From Roseomonas gilardii (GTDB taxonomy: Bacteria > Pseudomonadota > Alphaproteobacteria > Acetobacterales > Acetobacteraceae), in the NCBI RefSeq assembly GCF_001941945.1, contig NZ_CP015583.1, forward strand, positions 3,355,501-3,419,500: a DNA stretch of 64,000 bases. The letters run 5' to 3'. The position numbers and the translations under genes are program-made. Shown here in pieces: positions 4,634 through 27,250 of this stretch. Positions within the stretch are counted from its first letter, which is position 1, and every line of letters starts with the position of its first letter. The notes under the pieces were generated by a model. The model saw only the letters and a program-made list of their open reading frames with translations. It was not told the DNA's origin and did not search any database.

Positions 4634-4651
4634 GGTAACCGGTTGGTTCCC
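4634..4651. promoter_or_regulatory. Operator copy 1 of GGTAACC-N4-GGTTACC, before the sugar ABC operon
   Basis: Reads GGTAACC, spacer GGTT, GGTTCCC: one mismatch from a perfect 7-4-7 inverted repeat. It lies between the divergent TetR gene (ATG at 4764) and the ABC operon (ATG at 4545). The same element occurs at 5426, 27134 and 27233. Assignment to the TetR protein is inferred from position and repetition. Confidence 0.65.
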
Positions 4652-4763
4652 ACGCTAGGGAGGCGCCTCCCTTCGTGTCAAGCACGGATATGATCGGTCG
4701 TGATCGTGCGCGAGCGGTCTTTCCTCTGGCCTTGTGCGGCACCCACGGCAATTTTGCGGAACC

Positions 4764-5402
4764 ATGTCGGACATCCTCATCCCGCAGCGCAGCAAGCGCG
4801 CCGAAACCACCCGCCGGAAGATCCTGGACGCCGCGGTTGTCGAGTTCACCGCCAATGGCCTGGCCGGGGCCCGGGTGGACGAGATCGCCGCCCGGGCGGG
4901 GGTGAACAAGCGCATGCTCTATGTGCATTTCGGCAGCAAGGAGGAGCTCTGGATCCAGGTCCTGGAGCATGTCTATAGTGCCAAGCGGGAGGAGGAGCGG
5001 GCGCTCGACGTCGGCAGCCTGCCGCCGGTGGAGGCCATGGCGCGGCTGGTGCGCTTCAACCTGCGATACACGGCGCGGCACCCGGAATTCGTCACCCTGC
5101 TGAACCAGGAGAACATGCACCGGGCCAGTTACCTGGGCCGCAGCGAGCAGGTGCGCGCGCTCTACTCGCCCTTGCTCGAATCCGTGCGTGACGTGCTGGT
5201 GCGTGGCGCGGAGGCGGGCGTCTTCCGGCGCGATGCCGATCCGCTGCAGACCTATGTGACGATCGTGGCGGTCGGCCATTTCTACGTGGCCAACCTCCAT
5301 ACCCTGTCCGCCATCTTCAAGACCGACCTGTCCACCGAGGTGGCGCTGGGCCTGCGCGAGGATCACTGCGTGGATGTGATCCTGGGCTATCTTCGTGCTT
5401 GA
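4764..5402 (+). CDS. TetR/AcrR family transcriptional regulator
   Basis: 212 residues. A TetR helix-turn-helix covers about residues 14-60 (RRKILDAAVVEFTANGLAGA, then VDEIAARAGVNKRMLYVHFG). The ligand-binding half contains NQENMHRASYLGRS, typical of a common TetR C-terminal subfamily. The ATG at 4764 is preferred over an earlier in-frame GTG at 4734 because family members start close to the HTH. The gene diverges from the sugar ABC operon and precedes the oxidoreductase operon; near-identical inverted repeats flank it on both sides. It is the best candidate regulator of the four-operator regulon. The effector is unknown; a sugar or sugar acid is an inference. Confidence 0.88.
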   Translation: MSDILIPQRSKRAETTRRKILDAAVVEFTANGLAGARVDEIAARAGVNKRMLYVHFGSKEELWIQVLEHVYSAKREEERALDVGSLPPVEAMARLVRFNLRYTARHPEFVTLLNQENMHRASYLGRSEQVRALYSPLLESVRDVLVRGAEAGVFRRDADPLQTYVTIVAVGHFYVANLHTLSAIFKTDLSTEVALGLREDHCVDVILGYLRA

Positions 5403-5425
5403 CCGGCGAGGCCCTCCCGTTCTTA

Positions 5426-5443
5426 GGTAACCATGTAGTTACC
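5426..5443. promoter_or_regulatory. Operator copy 2 of GGTAACC-N4-GGTTACC, before the oxidoreductase/DUF993 operon
   Basis: Reads GGTAACC, spacer ATGT, AGTTACC: an almost perfect inverted repeat, 24 bp after the TetR stop and 21 bp before the ATG at 5465. A protein bound here would block the operon promoter. Its presence argues against starting the next gene upstream at 5399. Confidence 0.7.
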
Positions 5444-5464
5444 AAAACACGGGATGGAATCGTC

Positions 5465-6619
5465 ATGGCAGAGCGTCGCATTGGCCTGATCATGCATGGC
5501 GTGACGGGGCGCATGGGCATGAACCAGCACCTGATCCGCTCGATCGCCGCGATCCGGAAGGATGGCGGCGTCCCCCTGAAGAACGGCGACCGGCTGATGC
5601 CCGACCCGATCCTGGTCGGCCGCAACCGGGAGAAGCTGGAGGCCCTGGCCCGGGCGCATGGGGTGGAGCGCGTGGGCACCGATCTCGACGAGGCCCTGGC
5701 CAACAAGGACGACGAGATCTTCTTCGATGCCGGCACGACGCAGATGCGCGCCGCGCTGATCCGCAAGGCCATCGCCGCCGGCAAGCACATCTACACCGAG
5801 AAGCCGACCGCCGATAACCTGGAGGACGCGCTGGACGTGGCACGCCTCGCCCGCAAGGCCGGGGTGAAGAACGGCGCGGTGCAGGACAAGCTCTTCCTGC
5901 CCGGGCTGGTGAAGCTGAAGATGGCCATCGACAGCGGCTTCTTCGGCAAGATCCTCTCGGTGCGGGGCGAGTTCGGCTACTGGGTCTTCGAGGGCGACCT
6001 GCAGCCGACGCAGCGGCCTTCCTGGAACTACAAGAAGGACGAGGGCGGCGGCATCATCCTCGATATGCTCTGCCACTGGCGCTACGTCCTGGACAACCTG
6101 TTCGGCGAGACCAAGGCGGTCTCCTGCCTCGGCGCCACGCATATCCCGCGCCGCATCGACGAGAAGGGCGAGGCCTACGAGGCCGATGCGGACGACGCCG
6201 CCTATGCCACCTTCGAGCTGGAAGGCGGGGTGATCGCGCAGATCAACTCCTCCTGGGTCACGCGGGTGCGGCGGGACGACCTCGTGACCTTCCATGTGGA
6301 CGGCACGCATGGCTCCGCCGTGGCCGGGCTGATGACGTGCCGGACGCAGAGCCGGGTGAACACGCCGAAGCCCGTCTGGAGCCCCGACACGCCACAGCCC
6401 ATCGACTTCTTCGAGGGCTGGGAGGAGATCCCCGACACGCAGGCCTATCCCAACGGCTTCCGGGCGCAGTGGGAGCTCTTCCTGCGCCATGTCGCGGGCG
6501 AGCTGCCGGAGTTCAAATGGAACCTCCTGGCCGCCGCCAAGGGCGTGCAGCTCGCTGAGGCGGGGCTGAAGTCCTGGGCCGAGCGCCGCTGGATCGACCT
6601 GCCGAAGCTGGAGGTCTGA
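5465..6619 (+). CDS. Gfo/Idh/MocA family oxidoreductase
   Basis: 384 residues. The N-terminal nucleotide fold starts RIGLIMHGVTGRMGM, the catalytic lysine region is IYTEKPTADNLEDA near residue 120, and the C-terminal Gfo/Idh alpha-beta domain contains LDMLCHWRYVLDNLFGE. The start at 5465 has GGGATGG about 8 bp upstream; the frame is open back to 5399, but that stretch holds the operator. First gene of an operon with a DUF993 protein and a TIM-barrel isomerase, a layout typical of oxidation-aldol-epimerisation routes for sugars. It is distinct in sequence from the oxidoreductase at 426. Substrate unknown. Confidence 0.88.
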   Translation: MAERRIGLIMHGVTGRMGMNQHLIRSIAAIRKDGGVPLKNGDRLMPDPILVGRNREKLEALARAHGVERVGTDLDEALANKDDEIFFDAGTTQMRAALIRKAIAAGKHIYTEKPTADNLEDALDVARLARKAGVKNGAVQDKLFLPGLVKLKMAIDSGFFGKILSVRGEFGYWVFEGDLQPTQRPSWNYKKDEGGGIILDMLCHWRYVLDNLFGETKAVSCLGATHIPRRIDEKGEAYEADADDAAYATFELEGGVIAQINSSWVTRVRRDDLVTFHVDGTHGSAVAGLMTCRTQSRVNTPKPVWSPDTPQPIDFFEGWEEIPDTQAYPNGFRAQWELFLRHVAGELPEFKWNLLAAAKGVQLAEAGLKSWAERRWIDLPKLEV

Positions 6620-6624
6620 CCGCC

Positions 6625-7785
6625 GTGCCGACCCTGACCCTGCCGGGTGCCGACGGGCGCCTGGCGCCCTATACCACCGGCGCGCCGCGGGAGTTCCCCG
6701 TGGCGAAGCCGCCCTTCCCCCGCATAGCCCTGGCGGCCGCGCATCTGGTGGCCGATCCGCTGGCCGAGCAGGACCCCTGGCTCGACGTGAAGATCGACTG
6801 GGACCGCACCATCGCCTTCCGCCGCCATCTCTGGTCGCTGGGCCTGGGCGTGGCGGAGGCGATGGACACGGCGCAGCGCGGCATGGGCCTCGACTGGGCC
6901 GGGGCGCAGGAGCTGATCCGGCGCTCCCTCGACGCGATGAAGGACGTGCCCGGCGCGGTGATGGCCTCCGGCGCCGGCACCGACCATCTGGCGCCCGGGC
7001 CGGATGTCACGGTGGACGACGTGATCCGCGCCTATGAGGAGCAGTGCTCCGCCGTCGAGGGCATGGGCGGGCGCATCATCCTCATGGCCTCCCGCGCCCT
7101 GGCGAAGGCGGCGCGCGGGCCGGGCGACTATGTGCGCGTCTATGACCGCATCCTGCGGCAGGTGCGGGAGCCGGTGATCATCCACTGGCTGGGCGAGATG
7201 TTCGACCCGGCGCTGGAAGGCTACTGGGGGCATCACGACCACTGGAAGGCCATGGAGGTGGCGCTGGAGGTCATCGCCGACCATGCCGCCAAGGTGGACG
7301 GGGTGAAGATCTCCCTGCTCGACAAGGAGAAGGAGATCACCATGCGCCGCCGCCTGCCTGAAGGCGTGCGCATGTACACGGGCGACGACTTTAACTACGC
7401 CGAGACGATCGCCGGGGATTCCGAGGGGCATTCCGACGCGTTGCTCGGCATCTTCGACCCGATCGCCCCGGCGGTGGGCGGCGCGCTGGCCTGCCTGTCG
7501 CGGGACGACCTGCAGGGCTTCCACGACATCCTGGCGCCGACCGTGCCGCTCAGCCGGCACATCTTCAAGGCGCCGACCCGCTTCTACAAGACGGGCGTGG
7601 TCTTCATGGCCTGGCTGAACGGGCACCAGGACCATTTCACCATGGTCGGCGGGCAGCAGTCGGCCCGCTCCATCGGCCATTTCGCGGAGCTCTTCCGCCT
7701 CGCCGACAAGGCCGGGCTGCTGCGCGACCCGGACCTCGCCGCCACGCGTATGCGGCAGATCCTCGCGGTGCACGGCGTGTCATGA
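6625..7785 (+). CDS. DUF993 (dihydrodipicolinate synthase-like) protein
   Basis: 386 residues, matching the DUF993 family, which is related to the DHDPS/NAL class-I aldolases. Features seen: the VKISLLDKEKE segment near residue 228, where the Schiff-base lysine of DHDPS-like enzymes would be sought, and a conserved MYTGDDFNYAETIAGD motif. It starts with GTG 5 bp after the oxidoreductase stop and overlaps the next gene by ATGA, so the three are co-translated. A role as a sugar-acid aldolase or lyase is inferred from fold relationship and neighbours; to my knowledge the family lacks an assigned reaction. Confidence 0.82.
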   Translation: MPTLTLPGADGRLAPYTTGAPREFPVAKPPFPRIALAAAHLVADPLAEQDPWLDVKIDWDRTIAFRRHLWSLGLGVAEAMDTAQRGMGLDWAGAQELIRRSLDAMKDVPGAVMASGAGTDHLAPGPDVTVDDVIRAYEEQCSAVEGMGGRIILMASRALAKAARGPGDYVRVYDRILRQVREPVIIHWLGEMFDPALEGYWGHHDHWKAMEVALEVIADHAAKVDGVKISLLDKEKEITMRRRLPEGVRMYTGDDFNYAETIAGDSEGHSDALLGIFDPIAPAVGGALACLSRDDLQGFHDILAPTVPLSRHIFKAPTRFYKTGVVFMAWLNGHQDHFTMVGGQQSARSIGHFAELFRLADKAGLLRDPDLAATRMRQILAVHGVS

Positions 7786-8612
7786 GCATGGCGAAGAGCG
7801 ATCCCGGCCCCCTCTCCCTCAACACCGCCACGGTGAAGGAGCGCTGGGGGCTGGCGGAATGCATCGAGGGCTGCGCCCGGCACGGCATTCCCGGCATCTC
7901 CCCCTGGCGCGACGTGCTGCAGGCCATGGGGGTGGAAGAGGCGGCGCGGCAGATCCGCGATGCCGGGCTGCGCGTCACCGGCCTGTGCCGCGGCGGCATG
8001 TTCACGGCCCCCGATGCCGCCAGCCGCGCCGCCGCCATCGAGGACAACCGCCGCGCCATTGCCGAGGCCCATGCCATCGGCGCCGCCTGCCTCGTGATGG
8101 TCTGCGGCGGGCTGCCGCCCGGCTCCCGCGACCTGCCCGGGGCACGGGAGATGGTGCGGGAGGGGCTGCATGCCATCATGGGCGAGGCCCGCGATGCCGG
8201 CGTCACCATCGCGCTGGAGCCGCTGCACCCGATGACCTGCGCCGACCGCTCCGTGCTCGCCACGCTGGGGCAGGCGCTGGATCTCTGCGAGGAGCTGGGG
8301 CACGGCAGCGGCGTGGCGCTGGATGTCTATCATGTCTGGTGGGACCCGGACCTCGCCCGGCAGATGCGGCGTGCCAAGGGGAGGATCGCCGCCTTCCACA
8401 CCTGCGACTGGCTGGTGCCCACCACGGACACGGTCTTCGACCGGGGCATGCCGGGCGACGGGGTGATCGACATTCCCGCCATCCGCGCCATGGCGGAGGA
8501 GGCCGGCTGGCCCGGCGGGGCGGAGGTGGAGATCCTGTCCCGCCGCTGGTGGGCGCGCGATCCGGACGAGGTGCTGCCGCTGCTGAAGGAGCGCCACCAG
8601 AGCGCCTGCTGA
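7782..8612 (+). CDS. Sugar phosphate isomerase/epimerase-like TIM-barrel protein
   Basis: 276 residues of the xylose-isomerase-like TIM barrel (AP-endonuclease-2 superfamily). Metal-ligand positions are visible as ALEPLHPM (Glu, His), ALDVYHVWWDPDL (Asp, His) and the C-terminal GGAEVEILS (Glu). Third gene of the oxidoreductase/DUF993 operon, with its ATG overlapping the previous stop. Probably isomerises or epimerises a keto-sugar intermediate. A 10-bp stem-loop overlaps its stop codon, suggesting the transcript ends here. Confidence 0.86.
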   Translation: MSMAKSDPGPLSLNTATVKERWGLAECIEGCARHGIPGISPWRDVLQAMGVEEAARQIRDAGLRVTGLCRGGMFTAPDAASRAAAIEDNRRAIAEAHAIGAACLVMVCGGLPPGSRDLPGAREMVREGLHAIMGEARDAGVTIALEPLHPMTCADRSVLATLGQALDLCEELGHGSGVALDVYHVWWDPDLARQMRRAKGRIAAFHTCDWLVPTTDTVFDRGMPGDGVIDIPAIRAMAEEAGWPGGAEVEILSRRWWARDPDEVLPLLKERHQSAC

Positions 8613-8738: not shown

Positions 8739-9758
8739 ATGTCCCTCAACAGACGCGGCCTGCTGGCCGCCGGGCCGGCCCTGTCATGCCTGGCCCTTCC
8801 TTTCCTGGCCCGGCCCGCGCTGGCCCAAGGGAACGGTGCCCCGGGCAACGGTGCTCTATGGGCGCCGACGCATCCGGTGCGCTTCGTCGTCCCCTTCCCC
8901 GCCGGCGGTGCCACGGATGTGGTGGCACGCGTGCTGGGGGAACGGTTGCAGCAGCGCCTCGGCCAGCCGGTGGTGGTGGAGAACCGGACCGGCTCGGGCG
9001 GCAATCTCGGCATGGAGAATGCCGCGCATTCCGCCGCCGACGGCCATACGCTGGTGATGGCGACCATGGGGACGCTGAGCATCAACCAGCATCTGTACCG
9101 CAACCTCGGCTTCGATCCGGCGAAGAGCTTCGCCCCGATCTCCATGGCCTTCGGCACGGACCATGTGCTGATCGTCAATCCCGGAGTGCCCGCGCGGACG
9201 GCGCAGGACTTCGTGGCGCTGGCGAAGGAGAAGGGCGGCAGCATCAGCTATGGCTCGGCCGGTTCCGGCAGTTCCACCCATATGGTGGCGGAACTCTTCC
9301 GGCTCGCCGCCGGCATCCAGCCGATGCACGTGCCCTATCGCGGCAGCGCCCCGGCGCTGAACGACACGATCGCCGGGACGGTGCAGTTCATGCTGGACCA
9401 GCTTCCCTCCGCCATCGGCCAGATCCAGGCCGGCACGGTGCGTGCCCTGGCGACGACCGGCCCCCGGCGCTCCGCCCTCTTGCCGGAGGTGCCCACCATG
9501 GCGGAGGTCGGGCTGCCGGCGGCGGAGGCGACCTCCTGGGGAGCGGTCCTCGCGCCCGCCGGGACGCCGCCCGCCGCCATCGCCCGCTACAACCAGGCGA
9601 TCCGCGAGATCCTGGCCGAGCCCGGGGCGCAGGAGCGCCTCGCCGCTGCCGGGGCGGATGCGGTCTCGTCCACGCCCGGGGAACTCGCCGCCACTATCCA
9701 GCGGGAAAGCGATAAGTGGGGCCGCGTGGTGCAGGAGGCGAAGATCACCGTGAACTGA
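8739..9758 (+). CDS. Bug family tripartite tricarboxylate transporter substrate-binding protein
   Basis: 339 residues. The signal peptide ends ARPALA near residue 27. The family motif PVRFVVPFPAGGATDVVAR and the ligand loop VVENRTGSGGNLGMENAA are clear, as is PYRGSAPALNDTIAG. The ATG at 8739 has GGGAGAAG upstream; an earlier in-frame start at 8676 would hide the signal peptide. It should bind a carboxylate in the periplasm, but no TctA/TctB membrane subunits are nearby, so it is an orphan. It sits after the sugar operon and may have its own promoter. Confidence 0.9.
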   Translation: MSLNRRGLLAAGPALSCLALPFLARPALAQGNGAPGNGALWAPTHPVRFVVPFPAGGATDVVARVLGERLQQRLGQPVVVENRTGSGGNLGMENAAHSAADGHTLVMATMGTLSINQHLYRNLGFDPAKSFAPISMAFGTDHVLIVNPGVPARTAQDFVALAKEKGGSISYGSAGSGSSTHMVAELFRLAAGIQPMHVPYRGSAPALNDTIAGTVQFMLDQLPSAIGQIQAGTVRALATTGPRRSALLPEVPTMAEVGLPAAEATSWGAVLAPAGTPPAAIARYNQAIREILAEPGAQERLAAAGADAVSSTPGELAATIQRESDKWGRVVQEAKITVN

Positions 9759-9872
9759 TGCACGGGGCGCGGCCCGCGCATCCGGCGTTGCGCCATGCCG
9801 GGGAAAGGTTCCGCCACCGGCGTGGCGCATCGGCCCTCCCGAGTTCGCATTGCCCTTGCCGGACAGTGAGGC

Positions 9873-9896
9873 CCGCCCCGCTCCTTGCCGGGGCGG
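9873..9896. terminator. Stem-loop between convergent Bug and TonB-receptor genes
   Basis: Arms CCGCCCCG and CGGGGCGG with an 8-base loop, in the 148-bp space between genes ending at 9758 (+) and 9907 (-). It could end both transcripts; no T tract is present. Confidence 0.4.
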
Positions 9897-9906
9897 AGCG
9901 CCGCCC

Positions 9907-12081
9907 TCACCAGCGATAGGCGAGCGTGGCGTAAACGGCGCGGCCGACGCCATAGGAACAGGAGCTCGAATAGCAGGCGGCGAAGTAGTCCTTGTCGCCC
10001 AGGTTGGTGCCCGTCACGGTCAGGCGCCACTGCTTGTAGTCCGCGCGCAGCATGGCGTCGTAGAGGGTGAAGCCCGGCGCGTGGAAGATCGGCGTGGTCG
10101 CCGTCGGTGCGTTGTTGGCCATGGTGTTGCCGACGTAGCGGATGCCCGCGCCGGCGCCGAGCGTCAGGTTCTCCGATACCGGATAGCTGTAGTCGGCCCA
10201 GAGCGAGGCCATGTGGTTGGGCACGGTGGTCAGGCGGCGGCCAAGATTGTTGGCGGTGCTGCGCGTCACCTCCGTTTCCTGCGCCGTATAGGCGCCGATC
10301 AGGCTGAGCCCGTCGGTGAGGGCGACATGCGCCTCCAGCTCCACGCCGCGCGACTGCGCCTCGCCCGTCTGGATGGAGTAGTTCGCATAGATCGGATCGG
10401 CGGTCGTGACGTTCTTCTGCGTCAGCTCGAAATAGGCGGCCGAGAAGAGGCTGCGGCTGCCGGGCGGCTGGTACTTCACGCCGCCCTCGTATTGCGTGCC
10501 GGTGGTGGGCTTGAAGGTGTCTCCGCCGCGCTGCGGCGCGTAGGTGCTGAGCACGGGCAGGAAGGAGGTGGCGTAGGAGATGTAGGGCGACAGGCCGAAG
10601 TCGAAGGCGTAGAGCAGCGCCGCGCGGCCGGTGAGGGCGCTGTCGTCCTGGCTGGTGTCGGTGCCGGTGCGGTTGTTGTGCGTGTCGGAGCTGGCCCAGT
10701 CCTGCCGTCCGGTCAGCGTCAGGATCCAGTTGCCCAGCCGCGCCTGGTCCTGCGCATAGAGGCCGAGCTGGTTCTGCTTCTGGTTGTTCAGGGTGACGCT
10801 GGTGGCGCCGCGCGGCAGGGTGGGCACGGTGCCGTAGGAGGGATCGTAGACATCCAGCGTCGTGGTGGCGCCGGCCCAGGTGCGGTTGCTGACGCGCTGG
10901 TAGCGGTAGTCGAGCCCGACCAGCGCGGTATGGCGCAGCGGGCCGGTGTCGAAGCGCGCCTCGGCCTGGTTGTCGAGGGTGAGCGAGGCGGCGAGCGGCT
11001 GGTTGATCGAGGCGACGCGGTTCACCCGGCGCCACTGTCCGGCGACGAGGCCGGAGGCGTAGATCGTGTTGTAGTCGAGGGACTGGTAGGTGTAGCGCAG
11101 GTTCTGCCGCAGCGTCAGCCAGTCGGTCGCCTGGTGCTCCAGCATGTAGCCGAGGCTGTACTGGCTCTTGCGGTAGGTGTCCCAGTCCGGCTCGCCGGTG
11201 GTGCGGCCGCGCGGGATCCTGCCGTTGGGGTTGTAGAGCGCCGTGCCCTGCGGCGGCAGCCACTGGCCGGTCACGCCGTTGTCGTCGCGCAGGTAGCTGC
11301 CGAGCAGGGTGAGCGTGGTGTCCGCGCTCGGGCGCCAGCGCAGCGAGGGCGCGAGGTAGATGCGGTTGTCGTGGCCGCCGTCGAATTCCGTGTCGGCGTC
11401 GCGGATCAGGCCGACGAAGCGGCCGAGTAGCGTGTCATCGCCGGTCAGGCTGCCGCCGACATCCCACATACCCTGGAGGCGGCCGAAGCTGCCGGTCTGG
11501 AAGGCGATCTGCCGCACCTGCCCGGGATAGGGCGTCTTGCTGACCGCGTTGACCAGGCCGCCCAGGTTGCCCTGGCCATAGAGGGCCGAGGTGGTGCCGC
11601 GCAGGAGTTCCATGCGCTCCATGCCCCAGGGCTCGATGCGGAAGGACTGTGCCGTGACGGGGGCCGGCACGCGCGTCCCGTCCAGGAAGACATCGGCGCT
11701 GAAGCCGCGGACGCTGAAATACTCGCCGCGGTAGTCCGTGCCGCTGCTGAAGGCGCCGGGGCTGTAGCGCAGGGCCTCGTTGACCGAGCCGATGTTCAGC
11801 TTCTCGATCTGGTCGCTGGTGATGACGGAGACGGATTGCGGCGTCTCGACCAGCGGGGTGTCGGTCTTGCTGCCGGTGGCGCTGCGCGTGGCGACCAGGC
11901 CCTCGACCGGGCCGCGCGCGGTTTCGGCCGGCCTGCCGCGACCCTCCACGGAGACGGTGGGCAGAACCACCGGCTGGTCGGCCGCCGCGCCGGATTGGCC
12001 GAAGGCGGCGGGGGCACCGGCCATCAGGCCAAGCATGCCCAGGCAGATGGGAAGCTGTCTTGAAGCTGCGGGAACGCGCAC
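9907..12081 (-). CDS. TonB-dependent siderophore receptor (FhuA/FoxA-like)
   Basis: 724 residues. A signal peptide ends GAPAAFGQ near residue 29, followed by a TonB-box-like stretch (LPTVSVEG). The plug domain has ETPQSVSVITSDQIEKLN and the family motif ELLRGTTSALYGQGNLGG; the beta-barrel ends VYATLAYRW with a terminal aromatic residue for outer-membrane assembly. It lacks the N-terminal STN signalling domain found in the two other receptors here, so it transports without signalling to FecR. It starts with GTG and diverges from the first FecI gene. Iron-siderophore uptake is well supported; the particular siderophore is not. Confidence 0.92.
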   Translation of the reverse strand: MRVPAASRQLPICLGMLGLMAGAPAAFGQSGAAADQPVVLPTVSVEGRGRPAETARGPVEGLVATRSATGSKTDTPLVETPQSVSVITSDQIEKLNIGSVNEALRYSPGAFSSGTDYRGEYFSVRGFSADVFLDGTRVPAPVTAQSFRIEPWGMERMELLRGTTSALYGQGNLGGLVNAVSKTPYPGQVRQIAFQTGSFGRLQGMWDVGGSLTGDDTLLGRFVGLIRDADTEFDGGHDNRIYLAPSLRWRPSADTTLTLLGSYLRDDNGVTGQWLPPQGTALYNPNGRIPRGRTTGEPDWDTYRKSQYSLGYMLEHQATDWLTLRQNLRYTYQSLDYNTIYASGLVAGQWRRVNRVASINQPLAASLTLDNQAEARFDTGPLRHTALVGLDYRYQRVSNRTWAGATTTLDVYDPSYGTVPTLPRGATSVTLNNQKQNQLGLYAQDQARLGNWILTLTGRQDWASSDTHNNRTGTDTSQDDSALTGRAALLYAFDFGLSPYISYATSFLPVLSTYAPQRGGDTFKPTTGTQYEGGVKYQPPGSRSLFSAAYFELTQKNVTTADPIYANYSIQTGEAQSRGVELEAHVALTDGLSLIGAYTAQETEVTRSTANNLGRRLTTVPNHMASLWADYSYPVSENLTLGAGAGIRYVGNTMANNAPTATTPIFHAPGFTLYDAMLRADYKQWRLTVTGTNLGDKDYFAACYSSSCSYGVGRAVYATLAYRW

Positions 12082-20114: not shown

Positions 20115-20444
20115 GGATGGGCGTCGGTTCCTGGCAGGGGGGGCGGAAGGCGCGTCCTGCGGCCCCTGCCGGCGATCCTGTCCAGGTCGGTGCCTTCTTG
20201 GATGTAGACGGATGAGACAGCCGAAGGGACAGCGGCGAAGGGGCGTCCTCTGTACAAGCTCGGAAGACGTCCCGGATCTGGCTACGCATTCATCCGTTCT
20301 GAAGGCAAAACGTTATAGGAATCAGAGACATGGCAAGCCTGTAGGGGCTCTATCAGGCGGGGGATGGGCTGAATTCATATTGCGATCAATTCGCATTTGC
20401 TTCATAGACCGTCACCGAGTTGTTACAACATTCGGTCCCCTGAC
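20115..20444. other. 330-bp promoter region between methyltransferase and second FecI gene
   Basis: Noticeably more AT-rich than its surroundings from about 20290 to 20410. It holds the palindrome at 20381-20395 and no convincing reading frame. Confidence 0.6.
20381..20395. promoter_or_regulatory. Candidate alphaproteobacterial Fur box before second FecI gene
   Basis: TGCGA-TCAAT-TCGCA: perfect 5-bp arms with a 5-bp centre, 50 bp before the sigma ATG at 20445. It fits the Fur/Mur-type TGCRAAT-N-ATTYGCA pattern reported in alphaproteobacteria at 12 of 14 positions. It would couple the sigma gene to iron starvation. Confidence 0.6.
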
Positions 20445-20954
20445 ATGCTGTCCAGCCACGCCGGCGATCTCTGCGAGAATCTCTATGCCGACTATCGTGG
20501 CTGGCTGGTCTCGTGGCTCGGCAAGCGGATGCGTTGCAACGACAAGGCCAGCGACATCGTCCAGGACCTGTTCTGCCGCCTGGTCGAACGGCCGCCCTCG
20601 GCCATCGGCAAGCCGCGCGCCTTCCTCGCCACCAGCGCCATCCGGCTGCTGATCGACCAGCGACGGCGTTCGGCCGTGGAGCAGGCCTATCTCGAAGCCC
20701 TCGCGGTGGCGGAACAGAGGAACAGTGCCGCCTCTCCCCTGGAGACCTATGAAGCGGTGGAAACGCTCACCGCCATCGCCTGCATGCTGGAGGGCATGGC
20801 GGAGCGCCCGCGCCGGGCCTTCCTGCTGAACCGCCTGGAGGGGCTCAGTTATGCCGAGATCGCGGCGGAACTCGGGGTCTCCACCAGCATGGTGAAGCAG
20901 TACATGGCCAGTGCCCTGGTGCATTGCTACAGCATCGCCCATCCGCCGGCATGA
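20445..20954 (+). CDS. FecI-family ECF sigma factor (second copy)
   Basis: 169 residues with regions 2 (KASDIVQDLFCRLVER, PRAFLATSAIRLLIDQRRR) and 4 (RPRRAFLLNRLEGLSYAEIA, recognition helix GVSTSMVKQYMASAL). The ATG at 20445 is chosen over a TTG at 20397 because the latter lies at the Fur-like palindrome. It overlaps the following fecR-like gene by ATGA, a tight coupling expected for sigma/anti-sigma pairs. It is clearly diverged from the copy at 12226, so the two systems should have separate target promoters. Confidence 0.9.
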   Translation: MLSSHAGDLCENLYADYRGWLVSWLGKRMRCNDKASDIVQDLFCRLVERPPSAIGKPRAFLATSAIRLLIDQRRRSAVEQAYLEALAVAEQRNSAASPLETYEAVETLTAIACMLEGMAERPRRAFLLNRLEGLSYAEIAAELGVSTSMVKQYMASALVHCYSIAHPPA

Positions 20955-21895
20955 CGGAGCCCACCCCGGACATGGTGCGCCATGCCGCCGACTGGCATGC
21001 GGCGCTCAGTTCCGGCGATGCAACGGAAGCCGACTTCGCGCGATGCTCCGCCTGGCAGTCGGAGCATCCGGCCCAGGCCGAGGCCTTCCGCCGCATCGAG
21101 CGGATCATGGGCCGGCTGGACGGCCTGCCTCCCGGCCCGGCGCGGGAAGCGTTGCGAGCGGGTGGCGTGGCGTCGCGGCAGGCGCGGCGGCTGATCGCGG
21201 GCGGGGCCGTGCTGGGGCTGCTCGTCCCCCTCGCCCTGGCCTCGGCGGACTGGCCGTGGATCACCGCCGACTATCACACCGGCACGGGCGAGATCGCCGA
21301 ACGGACGCTTCCGGACGGCACGCGCGTCACGCTGGCGTCCAACAGCGCCATCCGCATCGACTACGACCGGCCGGAGCGGCGCATCCAGCTTGTACGCGGC
21401 GAGATCATGCTGGATGTCGCGCGCGATCCCGTCCGGCCGCTGCTGGTGGAGACCGCGCAAGGCAGCCTGCAGGCGCTGGGGACACGCTTCGCGGTGCGGC
21501 GGGGGGAGTCCGGCTCGGACACGGATGTCATCGTCGAGGAATCCTCGGTGGAGGCCTGCGCCGCCGGGGGCAACTGCCTGGTGCTGAAGCCGGGTGATTC
21601 GGCGCATCTGCGAGGGCATCATGTGGAAGGCCCCATCCCGGTTCCGGCGGATGCGACGGCCTGGACGCGCGGTCTGCTGGTGGCCGATGCCATGCCGCTG
21701 GCGCAAGTGCTTGCCGAGCTGTCCCGCTATCATGCCGGCTTCCTGCGATACGACGCCTCGCGGCTCGCCGATCTCAGGGTCTCCGGGGTCTTTCCGCTGC
21801 GCGATACGGCCACGGCGCTGACCGCGCTGTCCGCCGCCCTGCCCATCGAGGTGCACCGGTACACCGGATTCTTCCTGGCCGTGGAGCGTCGCTAG
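20951..21895 (+). CDS. FecR-family anti-sigma/sensor protein (second copy)
   Basis: 314 residues. N-terminal DUF4880-like segment (AADWHAALSSGDATEADFAR), a membrane helix at about residues 77-97 (LIAGGAVLGLLVPLALA), then the periplasmic FecR domain (AERTLPDGTRVTLASNSAIR, QALGTRFAV) and the STN-contacting C-terminus (LAELSRYHAGFLRY, SGVFPL). The ATG overlaps the sigma stop. It partners the STN-bearing receptor at 21977. Confidence 0.9.
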   Translation: MTEPTPDMVRHAADWHAALSSGDATEADFARCSAWQSEHPAQAEAFRRIERIMGRLDGLPPGPAREALRAGGVASRQARRLIAGGAVLGLLVPLALASADWPWITADYHTGTGEIAERTLPDGTRVTLASNSAIRIDYDRPERRIQLVRGEIMLDVARDPVRPLLVETAQGSLQALGTRFAVRRGESGSDTDVIVEESSVEACAAGGNCLVLKPGDSAHLRGHHVEGPIPVPADATAWTRGLLVADAMPLAQVLAELSRYHAGFLRYDASRLADLRVSGVFPLRDTATALTALSAALPIEVHRYTGFFLAVERR

Positions 21896-21976
21896 AAAAA
21901 GCGCGGCGCCGCTGTCCCTGCGACGATCTCATCCGTCTGCATCTGCAGGAACTCACCGCACCCGGATGAATCGCTC

Positions 21977-24484
21977 ATGTATTCCAGGACTCACCGCTAC
22001 GCGCGCCTCGGGCGCACGCTCAGGGCCGCGCTGCTGGGCAGCGTGACTCTCGCGGCGCTGCCGTGCGGAGTGGCCCTGTCCCAGGACATCGCGCCCGCGC
22101 GTGCCGCCAGCTACAACATCCCGCCGGGCCCGCTCGGGGCGGCCCTGAACAGCTTCGCCCAGCAGGCCGGCGTCACCCTGTCCTTCAACTCGGCGCAGGT
22201 CCAGGGCCTGCGCAGCAACGGGCTGAGGGGGGAGACGAACATCGTCAGCGGTTTCTCCACCCTGCTCGCCGGCACGGGGCTGGAGGCGCATTCCAACGAC
22301 GGCGCCATCTTCACCCTGCGATCCGCGACCCAGGCCGGCAGCGCGGCGGCGCCGTCGCCGGACGGGATGGTCATGCTGCCCGAGGTCAGCGTGGTCGCCA
22401 CGGCGGAGGAGGAGCTGCTCCAGGCGCCAGGCGTGTCGATCATCACGCGCGAGGACATCCAGCGCATGCCGCCCGCGAACGACATCTCCGAGATCGTGCG
22501 GACGATGCCGGGCGTGAACCTCACCGGCAACTCCTCCTCCGGCCAGTATGGCAACAACCGCCAGATCGACCTGCGCGGCATGGGGCCGGAGAACACCCTC
22601 ATCCTGATCGACGGCAAGCCGGTCCGCTCGCGCAACTCCGTCCGCATGGGCCGGAGCGGCGAGCGCAACACGCGCGGCGATTCCAACTGGGTGCCGGCCG
22701 ATGCCATCGACCGCATCGAGGTGATCCGGGGGCCGGCGGCCGCGCGCTACGGCTCGGGCGCCTCCGGCGGCGTCGTCAACATCATCACCAAGCCGCCGAC
22801 CGACGAGACGCATGGCAGCGTCACCCTCTATGCGCTGCAGCCGGAAGACCGGCGGGAGGGCGATGGCCGCCGCGTGACCGCCACGCTCTCCGGACCGACG
22901 ACGGTTCCGGGCTTCAGCTACCGCCTCTATGGGAACTTCAACCGAACGGACGCGGACAGCCTGGATCTGAACAGGGCCGCCTCGGGAACCGCGGCGGATG
23001 CCACGCCGCCCGCCGGGCGGGAGGGCGTGGAGAACCGCGACGTCAACGGACTGCTGCGCTGGGACATCAATCCGCGGCATGTGGTCGAGCTGGAGTTGGG
23101 CTACAGCCGGCAGGGCAACATCTATGCCGGCGACCGCGCGGTGAGCAGCGCCGGCAGCGCGCTGCTGAGCCAGCTCGCCAACGAGGGCGCCGAGACCAAC
23201 ATCATGACGCGGACCACCACCTCGCTGGCGCATCGCGGCGACTGGGGATGGGCGGATTCGCGCGCGCTGTTCCAGTACGAGGGAACGGTCAACAAGCGGC
23301 TCGTGGAGGGCCTCGCGGGTTCCAGCGAAGGCAGCATCAACACCGAAACCGGCTTCAACACGGCGCATCTCAACAACTACACCCTGAATGGCGAGATCAA
23401 CATCCCGCTGGAACTGCTCTTTCCGCAGCGCCTGACCATCGGGGCCGAGTATTTCGGCGAGAACCTCAAGGACCCCGGCTCCGTGGCCCAGGCCTTCTCC
23501 GGCGGCGCCATTCCTGGCATCGACCAAGCCAACCGTCCCGGCAGCGCCAACGCGGAGACCTATTCCGCCTTCATCGAGGACAACATCTCCGCGACGACCC
23601 GGCTGACCGTGACGCCGGGCGTGCGCTTCGACCGGCACAGCCAGTTCGGCTCCAACTGGAGCCCGTCGCTCAACGCGTCCTATGAGGTGCTGGACGGCCT
23701 TTCCCTGAAGGGCGGCATCGCCCGTGCCTTCAAGGCGCCGAACCTTTATCAGTCGAACCCCAACTACATCTACTACACCATGGGCAATGGCTGTCCGGTC
23801 GATTTCCCGTCCCTCGGTGCCGGTTGCTATGTCCAGGGCAATGCGGACCTGAAGGCCGAGCACAGCATCAACAAGGAGATCGGCCTGGCCTATAACCGGG
23901 GCGGCTTCAGCAGCAGCGTGACCTATTTCCACAACGACTACCGCGACAAGATCGTCGCCGGCATCATCCCGGTCGGGCAGACGGCGACCCGTGGCCGCAT
24001 CCTGCGCTGGGAAAACACGCCGGAAGCCGTCGTCCAGGGCATCGAGGGCAACATCCTGATCCCGATCCTCGACGGCCTCGCCTGGAACACCAACGTCACC
24101 TACATGATCGAGAGCAAGGACAAGGCGACGGGCCAGCCGCTTTCCCTGATCCCCGAATACACGATCAACAACTCGCTCGACTGGCAGGCCCGCGACGACC
24201 TCTCCTTCCGGCTCGCCATGACGCATTACGGGCGCCAAGAGGCCCGGACCATCGACTCGCTGGGGGGCGCCAATACCGGCGCCGAACTGTGGGAACGCAA
24301 GCCCTATACCGTGGTCGATGTCAGCGGCAGCTATTTCATCAGCGACAATACGCGGCTGACCGCAGGCATCAACAACCTGTTCGACGAGCAGCTGTTCCGC
24401 CAGGCGAATTCCAGCGGCGCGGGCGCCAATACCTACAACGAACCGGGACGCGCCTATTTCGTGAGCCTGACCGCCAGCTTCTGA
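21977..24484 (+). CDS. TonB-dependent receptor, FepA-like, with STN domain
   Basis: 835 residues. Signal peptide to about residue 36, STN domain near 45-115 (YNIPPGPLGAALNSFAQQAG), plug with GVSIITREDIQRMPPANDIS, LRGMGPENTLILIDGKPV and IEVIRGPAAARYGSGASGG, and a barrel ending FVSLTASF. The DGKPVRSRNSVRMGRSGERN stretch is characteristic of FepA/PfeA-type catecholate (enterobactin-like) receptors, unlike the two FhuA/FoxA-class receptors in this window. It is the third gene of the second sigma/FecR module. Catecholate specificity is a family-level inference. Confidence 0.92.
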   Translation: MYSRTHRYARLGRTLRAALLGSVTLAALPCGVALSQDIAPARAASYNIPPGPLGAALNSFAQQAGVTLSFNSAQVQGLRSNGLRGETNIVSGFSTLLAGTGLEAHSNDGAIFTLRSATQAGSAAAPSPDGMVMLPEVSVVATAEEELLQAPGVSIITREDIQRMPPANDISEIVRTMPGVNLTGNSSSGQYGNNRQIDLRGMGPENTLILIDGKPVRSRNSVRMGRSGERNTRGDSNWVPADAIDRIEVIRGPAAARYGSGASGGVVNIITKPPTDETHGSVTLYALQPEDRREGDGRRVTATLSGPTTVPGFSYRLYGNFNRTDADSLDLNRAASGTAADATPPAGREGVENRDVNGLLRWDINPRHVVELELGYSRQGNIYAGDRAVSSAGSALLSQLANEGAETNIMTRTTTSLAHRGDWGWADSRALFQYEGTVNKRLVEGLAGSSEGSINTETGFNTAHLNNYTLNGEINIPLELLFPQRLTIGAEYFGENLKDPGSVAQAFSGGAIPGIDQANRPGSANAETYSAFIEDNISATTRLTVTPGVRFDRHSQFGSNWSPSLNASYEVLDGLSLKGGIARAFKAPNLYQSNPNYIYYTMGNGCPVDFPSLGAGCYVQGNADLKAEHSINKEIGLAYNRGGFSSSVTYFHNDYRDKIVAGIIPVGQTATRGRILRWENTPEAVVQGIEGNILIPILDGLAWNTNVTYMIESKDKATGQPLSLIPEYTINNSLDWQARDDLSFRLAMTHYGRQEARTIDSLGGANTGAELWERKPYTVVDVSGSYFISDNTRLTAGINNLFDEQLFRQANSSGAGANTYNEPGRAYFVSLTASF

Positions 24485-24495
24485 GGCCGCGCCTT

Positions 24496-24516
24496 CCGCT
24501 CCTCCAGGGGGAGCGG
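24496..24516 (+). terminator. Stem-loop after the FepA-like receptor gene
   Basis: Arms CCGCTCC and GGAGCGG with a 7-base loop, 12 bp after the stop and before the YncE-like gene. Without a T tract it may only reduce read-through or protect the receptor mRNA. Confidence 0.35.
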
Positions 24517-24571
24517 GAGCAGCGGGGTTATCGCAATGCAGCCACATGACATCAACGGAGATGAAACAGCC

Positions 24572-26020
24572 ATGACGCGCCTCGATCCCCGGCCCCGCTG
24601 GACCCTTGCGGGCACGGTGCTGCTCGGCGCCCTTGCCCTGGGCGCCGGCCCGCTGGCGGCCCAGTCCCCCTTCGGTGCCGTCGATCCGGCGCCGGGCTCG
24701 CAGATCAGCTTCTCGGCCGTGGAGCGCAACCGCCCGATCCATGCGGGCGCGGAGGTGGCCGTCGCCGGCCAGGGCTTCAGGCCCGGCCAGCAGGTGACGC
24801 TGCTCTATGGCACGGCGCCCCTGCTCGACCGCGCCCTGGTGGCCGATGGCGAAGGCAGGATCGCGGGGCGGATCGCCGTGCCGGCCAGGGCGGTCGCCGG
24901 CAGCCATCCCATCGTGGTGGTGGCGCAGGAGCCGTACAACGCGACGGTCGCGACGCTGAAGGTCTCGCCCGTCATTCCGCTTTCGGAGCAGGAGCGGTTC
25001 CAGATCGGCGAGAAGCAGATCGCGCGCGGCCTGTACCAGTCCGCCTACAGCGCCCGCAACAACGCCCTGTTCGTCGCCTCCGCCGTCGGCCGTCCGCCGG
25101 TGCGGCAGTCCGAGCTGGTGCGGGTCGATCCGGACACGCTGGCCGTCGTTGCCCGCATCACGCCTGCCGCCGCGCCGGCTCCGGCGCCGCGGCCGGGCGC
25201 TCCCGCGAATGGGCAGGGCGGGGGCGCGGCGGCCGATGGCGGCGTCTATGCCGTCTATGGCGTCGGTGTGGACGATGCCAACGACACCGTCTGGGTCACC
25301 AACTCCCGCCAGAACACCGTGGCCGTCTACAGGCAGTCCGACCTGTCGCTGGTCCGGCAGTTCGAGCCGGGCACGGTCAACCACGCGCGTGACGTCGTGG
25401 TCGATCAGGCGCTGGGGAAGGCCTATTCCAGCGCGACCTTCCAGCCGGAGGTCGTCGTGTTCGACACGCGCAAGCCCGAGGTCGCCAAGCGCGTGAAGAT
25501 CCCGTCGCGGGTGCGGGGCGGCAGCTTCTCGGCGGCCAGCCTTTCCCTGAATGCCGCGGCGCATCGCCTCTATGTCGTCAGCAACTCGACCAACGAGGTC
25601 GCCGTCATCGACACGCGGACGGATGAGGTGGAGAAGGTCCTGCCCGTTCCGGGCACGCGGAGCGCCATCGGCGTGTCGCATGACCCGCAGACCAACCGCA
25701 TCTTCGTGGCCGCCCAGGGGAGCGACAACCTCGTCGTGCTCGACGAGAACGGCAAGACCGTCGCCGACACCCCGGTGGGCGCCAATGCGCTGAACGTGGT
25801 GTTCGACCCGGTGCGCCGTCTGGCCTATGTGAGCAGCCGAGTGGCCGGCACGATCACCGTCACGGATGCCGATGGCAGGATCGTCGCCAATCTGGGCCCG
25901 GCGCCGCTGGCCAACCATGTCGCCCTGGGCCGGAATGGCACCGTCTTCGCGGTCGACAAGTCCGCGGGCGCCCGGAACGAGGAGGGGGACAGGCTTCTGC
26001 GCATCCAGCCGCGTTCCTGA
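24572..26020 (+). CDS. YncE-family periplasmic beta-propeller protein
   Basis: 482 residues with a signal peptide ending GPLAAQ near residue 32. Residues about 45-130 form an IPT/Ig-like module (GQGFRPGQQVTLLYG), followed by YncE-type propeller repeats (VYGVGVDDANDTVWVTNSRQ, NEVAVIDTRTDEVEKVLPVP, LNVVFDPVRRLAYVSSR). A proline/alanine-rich linker sits near residue 205. E. coli YncE is Fur-regulated, and homologues often accompany TonB receptors; here it follows the FepA-like receptor by 87 bp. Function is not established. An alternative upstream ATG at 24536 would extend the N-terminus by 12 residues. Confidence 0.85.
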   Translation: MTRLDPRPRWTLAGTVLLGALALGAGPLAAQSPFGAVDPAPGSQISFSAVERNRPIHAGAEVAVAGQGFRPGQQVTLLYGTAPLLDRALVADGEGRIAGRIAVPARAVAGSHPIVVVAQEPYNATVATLKVSPVIPLSEQERFQIGEKQIARGLYQSAYSARNNALFVASAVGRPPVRQSELVRVDPDTLAVVARITPAAAPAPAPRPGAPANGQGGGAAADGGVYAVYGVGVDDANDTVWVTNSRQNTVAVYRQSDLSLVRQFEPGTVNHARDVVVDQALGKAYSSATFQPEVVVFDTRKPEVAKRVKIPSRVRGGSFSAASLSLNAAAHRLYVVSNSTNEVAVIDTRTDEVEKVLPVPGTRSAIGVSHDPQTNRIFVAAQGSDNLVVLDENGKTVADTPVGANALNVVFDPVRRLAYVSSRVAGTITVTDADGRIVANLGPAPLANHVALGRNGTVFAVDKSAGARNEEGDRLLRIQPRS

Positions 26021-26031
26021 CCAGCGACGGG

Positions 26032-26053
26032 GCCCCGGTGATATCCCCGGGGC
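26032..26053. terminator. Stem-loop between convergent yncE-like and dehydrogenase genes
   Basis: Arms GCCCCGG and CCGGGGC with an 8-base AT-containing loop, in the 64-bp gap between genes converging from both sides. Confidence 0.45.
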
Positions 26054-26084
26054 TCCGGTCGTCCCCATATGGGAAAGGCCCCCG

Positions 26085-27095
26085 TCAGGCCAGATGCGGC
26101 AGGTCCTGCGCCCGGACCTCGTGGCGCAGCGGCTCCCCGGACAGGAAGCGCCGGATCTCCTCGATGACCAGCGCCGTCATGCGCTGCGTTTCCGTCCCCT
26201 CCGCCCCCGCGATATGCGGCGTGAGGAAGACGTTGGGCAGGTCGTAGAGCGGATGCTCCGGCGGCAGCAGGTCGGGTTCCGTCACGTCGATCACCGCGCT
26301 GATCCGCCCGCCCGATAACGCCTCCACCAGCGCCTCCTGATCCACCAGGCCGCCCCGCGCCGTGTTCACCAGCACCGTGCCGTCCCGCATCAGCGCCAGT
26401 TGCCGCCGGCCGATCATGCCGCGCGTGGCGGTCAGAAGCGGCGCATGCAGGCTGACCAGATCGGCTTCGGCGAGCAGGGCCTCCAGCGGCCGCAAGGTGG
26501 CGCCCAGCCGTGCGGCCTCCTCCTCATCCAGGAAGGGATCGCTCAGCAGCACATGCAGGTCGAAGGGACGCAGCAGCTCGATCACCCGCCGCCCGATCCG
26601 GGAGGCGCCGACGATGCCGACCGTCTTGCCGTAATTGCCCAGGCCGGGCGCGAGGTTGCTCCAGGGCTTCGGTGCATCGCGCCGCTCCCGGTACAGGCGG
26701 TTGAGGCGGAAGACCTGCTTGTTGGCGAAGAGGATCACCGCCAGCGTGTATTCCGCCACCGGCAGCGCATTGGCATCGGCGGCATTGACCACGCGGATGC
26801 CGCGCTCCCAGGTCTCGGGCGCGAGATGTCCTTTCACCGTGCCGGCGAGATGCGCCACCAGGCGCAGGCGCGGCATGGCATCCAGCGCCGCCCGGTCCAG
26901 CGGTGGCGCGCCCCAGCCGGTCACCAGCACCTCCACCCGCGGCAGGAGCGGCGCCAGCGCGGGATCGTCGAAGCGGCGCACGGGACCGGGCGATATGACG
27001 TCCAGCAGTTCCCGCAGCCGCGCGTGCTGCGCTGCGGAAACGGTTTCGGGGTTACGGTCCGGATCATAGGCCAGCAGGGCGGCGGGTCCGCTCAT
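26085..27095 (-). CDS. D-isomer-specific 2-hydroxyacid dehydrogenase
   Basis: 336 residues. NAD-binding motif VGIVGASRIGRRV near residue 160; catalytic arginine in LVNTARGGLVD near 240, glutamate in VTEPDLLP, histidine in LTPHIAGAEGT near 292. It interconverts a D-2-hydroxyacid and its 2-keto acid. It diverges from the sugar-binding protein/DUF2264 operon, and an operator copy lies 39 bp upstream of its ATG, so it probably belongs to the same carbohydrate regulon and handles a sugar-derived acid. Exact substrate unknown. Confidence 0.9.
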   Translation of the reverse strand: MSGPAALLAYDPDRNPETVSAAQHARLRELLDVISPGPVRRFDDPALAPLLPRVEVLVTGWGAPPLDRAALDAMPRLRLVAHLAGTVKGHLAPETWERGIRVVNAADANALPVAEYTLAVILFANKQVFRLNRLYRERRDAPKPWSNLAPGLGNYGKTVGIVGASRIGRRVIELLRPFDLHVLLSDPFLDEEEAARLGATLRPLEALLAEADLVSLHAPLLTATRGMIGRRQLALMRDGTVLVNTARGGLVDQEALVEALSGGRISAVIDVTEPDLLPPEHPLYDLPNVFLTPHIAGAEGTETQRMTALVIEEIRRFLSGEPLRHEVRAQDLPHLA

Positions 27096-27133
27096 CGTTC
27101 CTCCCCACGCGGTTCTTTCTGCATCGCAGCAAA

Positions 27134-27151
27134 AGTAACCAATCGTTTACA
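27134..27151. promoter_or_regulatory. Operator copy 3 of GGTAACC-N4-GGTTACC, before the D-2-hydroxyacid dehydrogenase
   Basis: Reads AGTAACC, spacer AATC, GTTTACA: the weakest of the four copies, with the left arm nearly intact. Its centre is 99 bp from copy 4, close to a whole number of helical turns. Confidence 0.5.
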
Positions 27152-27232
27152 TGAGTTCTTGCCCGATCTATCCGCGATGCCCCCTTTCCATCAAGATCAT
27201 CTCTGATGTTGCTTGACAGGCCATGACGCAGG

Positions 27233-27250
27233 AATAACCTTCCGGTTACC
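27233..27250. promoter_or_regulatory. Operator copy 4 of GGTAACC-N4-GGTTACC, before the second sugar-binding protein
   Basis: Reads AATAACC, spacer TTCC, GGTTACC: right arm perfect, left arm five of seven. It lies 143 bp before the ATG at 27393. Confidence 0.6.

What the first reader, a model, noticed from the sequence alone, without database searches (positions are those of the whole stretch)
4634..27250. Four copies of an 18-bp inverted repeat define a split carbohydrate regulon
GGTAACC-N4-GGTTACC-like sites occur at 4634, 5426, 27134 and 27233, each at a promoter of sugar-uptake or sugar-acid genes: the ABC operon, the Gfo/Idh-DUF993-isomerase operon, the D-2-hydroxyacid dehydrogenase, and the binding protein/DUF2264 operon. 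The TetR gene at 4764 lies between the first two. Seen directly: the repeats and positions. Inferred: that this TetR binds them and that the products form one pathway.
Basis: partly seen in the sequence, partly recalled or inferred. Interest (0 to 1): 0.72.

Follow-up and report, generated by a model that had tools for sequence, protein, structure and literature searches.

The report
TetR operator sites uniting sugar-use genes
Four matching DNA palindromes mark the promoters of one sugar-use gene set that a stretch of inserted genes has pushed apart, and comparison with related bacteria indicates that the TetR-type regulator encoded beside them is what reads them.

Summary
In detail: all four sites lie where stated, and a matrix built only from 12 other genomes ranks them 1st-4th in the window.

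TetR binding is well supported by computation. The site between tetR and the Gfo/Idh gene is kept in 15 of 15 genus genomes, own included. A strict pattern finds 22 places in those genomes against 1 for its control. Seven of seven genomes with the site but no tetR beside it hold a tetR ortholog elsewhere. Recognition-helix residues change with operator bases, though in few independent events.

The "split" is recent: two close relatives have the genes contiguous; the window carries a 16.3-kb insert. Eight Rhizobium-type loci hold the same genes except TctC.

In Rhizobium the D2HDH-DUF2264 part has no TetR site and, in the one locus scanned, a LacI gene, so this TetR probably gained it later.

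Substrate unknown; a uronate glycoside is the best guess. Binding, repression and inducer are untested. New member of a known kind.

The parts
4634..4651 (.). Operator O1, between the ABC-transporter operon (minus strand) and tetR (plus strand)
   Evidence: score 19.7; kept in the two closest genomes, not in the other 12; a near-core site ATAACTAATTGGTTAC lies in the gap between the ABC operon and tetR in 8 of 8 full Rhizobium-type clusters; TTGAC 30 nt upstream on the ABC side
5426..5443 (.). Operator O2, between tetR and the Gfo/Idh operon; preceded by CTTA in all 15 genus genomes
   Evidence: score 25.7; flanks printed for all 15; kept in 15 of 15 genus genomes; TTGAC 26-27 nt upstream in 15 of 15
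27134..27151 (.). Operator O3 (weak), before the D-2-hydroxyacid dehydrogenase gene
   Evidence: score 15.0, 4th best in window; degenerate equivalents in both close relatives (L082:5357; L081 about 14618); no TTGAC upstream
27233..27250 (.). Operator O4, before the binding-protein/DUF2264 operon, placed over the expected -10 region of a TTGACA promoter
   Evidence: score 19.9; equivalents in both close relatives (L081:14719, L082:5258); TTGAC 20 nt upstream
4764..5402 (+). TetR-family regulator (TetR_N + TetR_C_29), the predicted repressor
   Evidence: Pfam; match in 15 of 15 genus genomes at 69-100% identity; helix-operator covariation
5465..6619 (+). Gfo/Idh/MocA oxidoreductase, first gene of the core operon
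   Evidence: close solved relative 3oqb, E 1.6e-173
6625..7785 (+). DUF993 protein, function unknown
   Evidence: PF06187, E 1.4e-184; solved relative 4dnh, E 1.1e-175
7782..8612 (+). Sugar isomerase/epimerase (AP_endonuc_2 TIM barrel)
   Evidence: solved relatives 3ju2 (SMc04130) and 3qc0
8739..9758 (+). TctC-type binding protein, last gene of the core operon
   Evidence: Pfam; follows the isomerase gene in 14 of 14 other genus genomes (in two pieces in G004)
3610..4545 (-). ABC sugar permease (MalF/UgpA type)
2751..3617 (-). ABC sugar permease (MalG/UgpE type)
1648..2748 (-). ABC ATPase (MalK/UgpC type); the open frame runs on to 3057
   Evidence: UgpC subfamily cut-off passed; the shorter start was my choice
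426..1664 (-). Second Gfo/Idh/MocA oxidoreductase
   Evidence: no NCBIfam equivalog cut-off reached
26085..27095 (-). D-2-hydroxyacid dehydrogenase
27393..28682 (+). Extracellular sugar-binding protein (SBP_bac_1/8)
28682..30592 (+). DUF2264 protein, GH154-like predicted uronate dehydratase
9759..26071 (.). 16.3-kb insertion that splits the cluster (ECF sigma, FecR and TonB-receptor genes); not part of the regulon

Best explanation
The four palindromes are operators of the TetR-family protein encoded at 4764-5402. Each arm of the TetR dimer recognises GTAACC/GGTTAC. At O2 and O4 the operator lies where the -10 region and start of a TTGAC promoter should be, so bound TetR should block RNA polymerase; a small molecule from the pathway should release it. 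The genes controlled are a sugar ABC transporter plus a second Gfo/Idh enzyme (O1), the core Gfo/Idh-DUF993-isomerase-TctC operon (O2), a D-2-hydroxyacid dehydrogenase (O3), and a binding protein with a GH154-like uronate dehydratase (O4). O1 and O2 are old. O3 and O4 were probably gained in this branch, whose cluster has no room for the LacI gene found beside that part in Rhizobium. A later 16.3-kb insertion pushed the two halves apart; the trans-acting regulator keeps them one regulon. Shown here: sites, conservation, helix-operator covariation, contiguity in relatives, position behind a TTGAC element. Inferred: binding, repression, inducer, order of gains, and a uronate-containing glycoside as substrate.
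For: A matrix from 12 other genomes puts the four sites first in the window. The site beside tetR is in 15 of 15 genus genomes, own included. The strict pattern RGTAACYN4RGTTACY has 22 places in 15 whole genomes against 1 for the control; 15 of the 22 are the core operon. In 80 named DUF993 loci the exact core GTAACN6GTTAC occurs 62 times against 1 for the control, and 40 loci have it within 150 bp of tetR. Seven of 7 genomes with the site but no local tetR have an ortholog elsewhere: 5 at 70-73%, 2 at 52-53%. Half-site bases follow the recognition helix: with Arg50 and no Tyr54, 88 of 90 half-sites are GTAAC; all 9 TTAAC-type proteins have Tyr54 and all 8 (T/C)CAAC-type have Gln50-Leu51-Val52. 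TTGAC lies 26-27 nt upstream of O2 in 15 of 15. The genes are contiguous in two relatives and together, without TctC, in 8 Rhizobium-type loci.
Against: No binding or expression data. The operator classes need only 4 changes on the tree, so independent covariation events are few, and in 6 of the 9 TTAAC-type sites only one half is TTAAC; 35 of 95 TetR proteins have no palindrome at the first threshold. Fifteen of 55 loci with tetR lack an exact core within 150 bp: 8 of them have the TTAAC type, 1 a near-core site, and in 6 I found none. Whole-genome counts with 2-3 mismatches do not exceed the control. O3 is degenerate, has no TTGAC upstream and scores little above two places outside the regulon (14.7, 14.6). 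O1 is kept in only 2 of 14 other genus genomes. No GH88/GH105 hydrolase was among the regulon genes scanned, so the uronate route is incomplete. A profile comparison of DUF993 with a DHDPS-like protein gave no support for homology.
Confidence: 0.82

Rival explanations
1. A different regulator, such as a TetR paralog, reads the sites, and the neighbouring TetR is a bystander.
For: The own genome has three paralogs at 38-43% identity. Similar sites near amidase, MFS and TRAP-transporter genes elsewhere have no TetR match in the fetched stretch.
Against: The ortholog, not a paralog, tracks the site. The paralog clade with NKQLVY has its own different palindrome, (T/C)CAACC.
Confidence: 0.08
2. 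This TetR controls only O1 and O2. The far pair O3/O4 is read by something else or is decaying.
For: O3 has 3 mismatches and a middling score; in the 8 full Rhizobium-type clusters the D2HDH-DUF2264 part has no such site, and L155, the one scanned, has a LacI gene there.
Against: O4 scores as high as O1, and both O3 and O4 have equivalents in the two close relatives. The relatives' clusters leave no room for a LacI gene beside DUF2264; their whole genomes were not searched for it.
Confidence: 0.15
3. The TetR protein activates rather than represses at these promoters.
For: Some TetR proteins activate (recalled).
Against: O2 begins 26-27 nt after the start of a TTGAC element in 15 of 15 genomes, a blocking position.
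Confidence: 0.07
4. The palindromes are chance or act as RNA hairpins/terminators.
For: They are inverted repeats; mismatch counts in the whole genome do not exceed the control.
Against: Independent matrix ranking, 62 against 1 core counts, fixed promoter position.
Confidence: 0.01

Closest known systems
Local TetR-family repressors with a divergent or adjacent operator (the general TetR/AcrR pattern; recalled)
   Same: TetR_N helix-turn-helix, palindrome between regulator and target gene, operator at the promoter
   Different: No curated NCBIfam TetR equivalog reaches its cut-off (RutR 53.5 of 368 bits; ScbR-type 58.2 of 150); operator and targets not found in print in my searches
Rhizobium-type cluster MalK-permeases-SBP / TetR-Gfo/Idh-DUF993-isomerase-Gfo/Idh / D2HDH-DUF2264 (L155 and 7 others)
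   Same: Same gene set except TctC, sites at the O1-like and O2 positions
   Different: D2HDH-DUF2264 part has no TetR site and, in L155, a LacI gene; TetR 47-49% identical; regulator and substrate not described in the papers I searched
BcGDH and GH154 (beta-D-glucuronate dehydratases; PDB 9o4u, 9nwf; PMC12269599, passages seen)
   Same: The window DUF2264 protein keeps all 8 alignable active-site residues
   Different: 636 aa with a DUF2264_C domain; no GH88/GH105 partner among the regulon genes scanned; substrate unknown
LacI-family sugar regulons (PMC4052901, search listing with the start of its abstract only)
   Same: Local regulator of a sugar transport and catabolism set
   Different: Here the regulator is TetR-type

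Membership tests
TetR/AcrR transcription factor family | TetR_N DNA-binding domain and a TetR C-terminal ligand domain | tested here: met
   PF00440 53.7 bits (cut-off 24), PF17938 TetR_C_29 137.2 bits (cut-off 26.2)
TetR/AcrR transcription factor family | Palindromic site at its own or a neighbouring promoter | tested here: met
TetR/AcrR transcription factor family | Direct binding and ligand-released repression | not testable with these tools
   Needs EMSA and a deletion mutant; helix-operator covariation is indirect support
Named TetR regulators (RutR, AcrR, BetI, FadR, AcuR and others in NCBIfam) | Reaching the curated equivalog cut-off | tested here: not met
   19 families listed, none at its cut-off
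GH154 uronate dehydratases | Sequence match to BcGDH and kin | tested here: met
   9o4u E 6.5e-24, 9nwf E 4.8e-23, 8oi4 E 8.3e-23
GH154 uronate dehydratases | Ten active-site residues mutated in BcGDH (E74 R78 N176 N177 W178 F181 Y229 R285 Y289 Y354) | tested here: met
   8 of the 8 that fall inside the alignment are identical (residues named, alignment, mapped by hand); E74 and R78 lie outside it and were not tested
GH154 uronate dehydratases | Dehydratase activity on a beta-glucuronide | not testable with these tools
   Needs an assay at 232 nm
Inositol dehydrogenase IolG (both Gfo/Idh proteins) | TIGR04380 cut-off | tested here: not met
   100.9 and 60.8 bits against 355
DHDPS/DapA superfamily (for DUF993) | Profile similarity to a DHDPS-family member | tested here: inconclusive
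   hhalign probability 0.5 with shallow profiles; structure prediction never started

The most novel reading that the evidence does not exclude
A TetR regulator conserved across Alphaproteobacteria, with relatives in Beta- and Gammaproteobacteria, controls an undescribed catabolic route for a uronate-containing glycoside, in which DUF993 is a new enzyme; in one Roseomonas-type branch this TetR took over a gene module that a LacI protein controls in rhizobia.
Probability: 0.45. Interest if true: 0.65.

Novelty: new member of a known kind. Interest (0 to 1): 0.5.

Why it matters
It gives an operator, a regulator and a gene set for a widely conserved cluster whose three core enzymes have close solved relatives under vague names (4dnh "Uncharacterized protein", 3oqb "Oxidoreductase", 3ju2 "uncharacterized protein SMc04130", 3qc0 "sugar isomerase") but no function that I found in print. 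Derepression of this operon is a direct handle for finding the substrate. It also offers a clean case of regulon growth: one strict operator in 11 of 15 genus genomes, several in one branch, including a module that has its own LacI gene in a Rhizobium.

Tried and rejected
Mismatch counting in the whole genome was rejected as evidence because the reversed control gave as many or more matches; I replaced it by the matrix and the strict pattern. The lists were cut, so not every place with 2-3 mismatches was looked at.

Other own-genome matches: C2:196406 and C1:1808945 lie inside predicted genes and were set aside. C3:201339 is intergenic, 12 bp before a doubtful open frame, with a GGTGACC half (13.4). 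C1:2260782 (14.7) and C1:2778859 (11.0) are intergenic, before a Gfo/Idh-SIS-cytidylyltransferase set and a gene without Pfam match. I left these out of the regulon for their scores and lack of related genes; C1:2260782 scores almost as high as O3, so this cut is a judgement.

DUF993 as a DapA-like aldolase: motif resemblance seen by eye, profile comparison negative, structure prediction unavailable (not completed). Not claimed.

Literature: DUF993; DUF2264; SMc04129-04133 and SMc04135-04140; six general terms; Roseomonas + TetR + regulon; TetR family + operator + GGTAACC; PDB codes 4DNH/3OQB/3JU2/3QC0 gave nothing that I saw on this regulator, most of it from listings only. "Not in print" means these searches of open-licence PMC papers only. 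One paper lists SMc04132, 04133, 04135, 04138 and 04139 in a table of PhaR-dependent genes (PMC12542648, one passage).
Full report
THE OBSERVATION. The four repeats are at the stated coordinates. With up to 3 mismatches to GGTAACC-N4-GGTTACC the window has 5 matches where 0.61 are expected; no shuffle of 100 reached 5. I built a matrix from the equivalent site in 12 other genomes of the genus, leaving out the window's genome and its two closest relatives. It ranks the window's four sites first to fourth (25.7, 19.9, 19.7, 15.0; the next place 7.2), and 0 of 3,000,000 first-order random positions reach 15.0. Simple mismatch counts over the whole genome do not stand out: 7 places with up to 2 mismatches against 6 for the reversed pattern, and 76 against 118 with up to 3. 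Among the fetched places outside the window, two that I do not count as members score 14.7 and 14.6, close to O3. Of the four window sites only 5426 fits that strict form.

THE GENES. Pfam gives two Gfo/Idh enzymes, a MalK/UgpC-type ATPase and two sugar permeases, the TetR (TetR_N and TetR_C_29), DUF993, an AP_endonuc_2 sugar isomerase, a D-2-hydroxyacid dehydrogenase and a sugar-binding protein, then DUF2264 and, at the end of the core operon, a TctC binding protein. No NCBIfam TetR equivalog reaches its cut-off.

CONSERVATION IN THE GENUS. All 15 genomes searched, own included, have a tetR match at 69-100% identity, and in all 15 the palindrome stands between tetR and the Gfo/Idh gene, followed by DUF993, the isomerase and TctC in 14 of 14 others.

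THE SPLIT. In G004 and G007, the closest relatives, ABC operon, tetR, core operon, dehydrogenase, binding protein and DUF2264 form one contiguous cluster (in G004 the TctC and DUF2264 matches come in two pieces). The window has 16.3 kb (9759-26071) where these have 18-19 bp between matching blocks. The insert holds ECF sigma, FecR and TonB-receptor genes and shows no shared 11-mers near its ends. One part (window 9900-12151) is 92% identical to a stretch elsewhere in G004. The two far sites have equivalents in both relatives, so they probably predate the insertion.

WIDER CONSERVATION. In these 80 loci (1,426,036 bases) GTAAC-N6-GTTAC occurs 62 times, the reversed control once. Of the 80, 40 have tetR with the exact core within 150 bp, 15 have tetR without it, 7 have the site without tetR, 18 have neither, several of them short contigs. 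Of the 15, eight have a TTAAC-type site, one a near-core site, and six none that I found; three of the 15 have an exact core elsewhere in the locus. I searched the genomes of all 7 site-only loci and of 9 of the 18 "neither" loci for tetR. All 7 hold an ortholog elsewhere (70-73% in five, 52 and 53% in two). Of the 9, four have no hit at E 1e-35, three have only 41-44% matches, one has a 56% match with a site beside it (L188) and one a 48% match. In six of the seven site-only loci the site stands before an extra DHDPS-like gene ahead of the Gfo/Idh gene; L130 differs.

RECOGNITION HELIX. From 95 different TetR proteins in these loci and the genus (4 identical ones dropped) I took, by script, the best nearby palindrome of the form AAC-N6-GTT with at least 6 of 8 arm bases complementary; 60 have one, 35 do not. 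I then lowered the threshold to 5 of 8 for a tree, giving 72: 52 of GTAAC type, 9 with at least one TTAAC half (both halves in 3), 8 (T/C)CAAC, 3 (T/C)GAAC. All 9 TTAAC proteins have Tyr at position 54; all 8 (T/C)CAAC proteins have Gln50-Leu51-Val52; the 3 others read TKRMIYYY. I saw no GTAAC-type protein with Tyr 54 in the listing; several Tyr-54 proteins have no palindrome there. On a tree the four classes need 4 changes (shuffled mean 19.5), so the link is clear but rests on few independent events.

PROMOTERS. A TTGAC -35-like element begins 26-27 nt before the core-operon operator in 15 of 15 genus genomes, and 15-35 nt upstream in 48 of 62 sites of the 80 loci; random places in the window have it in 0.56%. 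It is 30 nt upstream of O1 on the ABC side and 20 nt upstream of O4, and absent at O3 and on the tetR side of O1. By that spacing the operator lies over the -10 region and start, a blocking position. Repression is inferred.

THE FAR MODULE. Eight Rhizobium-type loci (L155, L156, L157, L161, L168, L177, L179, L180) hold ATPase, permeases, both Gfo/Idh enzymes, DUF993, isomerase, dehydrogenase and DUF2264, with tetR and binding proteins but no TctC match. They have an O2-type site and a near-core site in the gap between ABC operon and tetR, like O1, in 8 of 8; with up to 1 mismatch in the core there is no other site in these loci. In L155, the one scanned, a LacI gene lies directly ahead of DUF2264 on the same strand. 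I read this as O1 and O2 being old, and O3 and O4 a later capture of the dehydrogenase-DUF2264 part by this TetR. Against an old O1: 12 of the 14 other genus genomes lack it at the tetR locus, most of them without the ABC genes there.

MORE SITES. The own genome has a strict site at C1:17980 before a binding protein, a sugar isomerase and another D-2-hydroxyacid dehydrogenase. The site is kept in G004 and G007, which lack the binding-protein and dehydrogenase genes there but keep the isomerase at about 90% identity. I count it as a fifth likely member. A pair at C1:1325964/1326029 stands before an MFS transporter and an amidase, one site kept in G004; membership is open.

PATHWAY. The DUF2264 protein matches GH154-type proteins (9o4u E 6.5e-24). 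PMC12269599 (passages seen) reports that BcGDH and BT_3677 of that family are beta-D-glucuronate dehydratases. Mapped by hand onto the alignment, the eight of ten mutated active-site residues that lie within it (N176, N177, W178, F181, Y229, R285, Y289, Y354) are identical in the window protein; E74 and R78 lie outside it. This makes a uronate-containing glycoside the best guess for the substrate, at perhaps one chance in three. The core enzymes have very close solved relatives without a function that I found.

VERDICT.

Noticed in passing
window 9759-26071: 16.3-kb insertion relative to two close relatives: an ECF sigma-FecR-TonB receptor set, a second FecR-TonB pair (the gene before it, 20397-20954, was not scanned), a further TonB receptor and a protein with only sub-cut-off beta-propeller matches; no shared 11-mers at its ends; part is 92% identical to another place in G004.
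   Followed up: partly
L024:7965-8047 (G000:C1:1325964 and 1326029): Two operator-like sites 65 bp apart before an MFS transporter and an amidase; the second is kept in G004. No TetR match in the fetched stretch.
   Followed up: partly
L072:7434, L073:7706, L075:7380, L077:7525: In four genomes of the genus a similar site (1-2 mismatches) lies near the 5' end of an amidase-like gene, in L072 (the one scanned) divergent from a TRAP DctP gene; regulator unknown.
   Followed up: partly
L047-L054 flanks: TetR paralogs of the genus have their own palindrome (T/C)CAAC-N6-GTTG(A/G), a second, related regulator-operator family.
   Followed up: partly
L107, L108, L109, L117-L120, L123, L124, L127, L129, L130, L138, L143, L146, L148: An extra DHDPS-like gene in 16 of 80 DUF993 loci, in several ahead of the Gfo/Idh gene and behind the operator.
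   Followed up: partly
L082:1916-3822 and 6443-7437: In G004 the DUF2264 and TctC matches come in two pieces, so these genes may be broken there.
   Followed up: no
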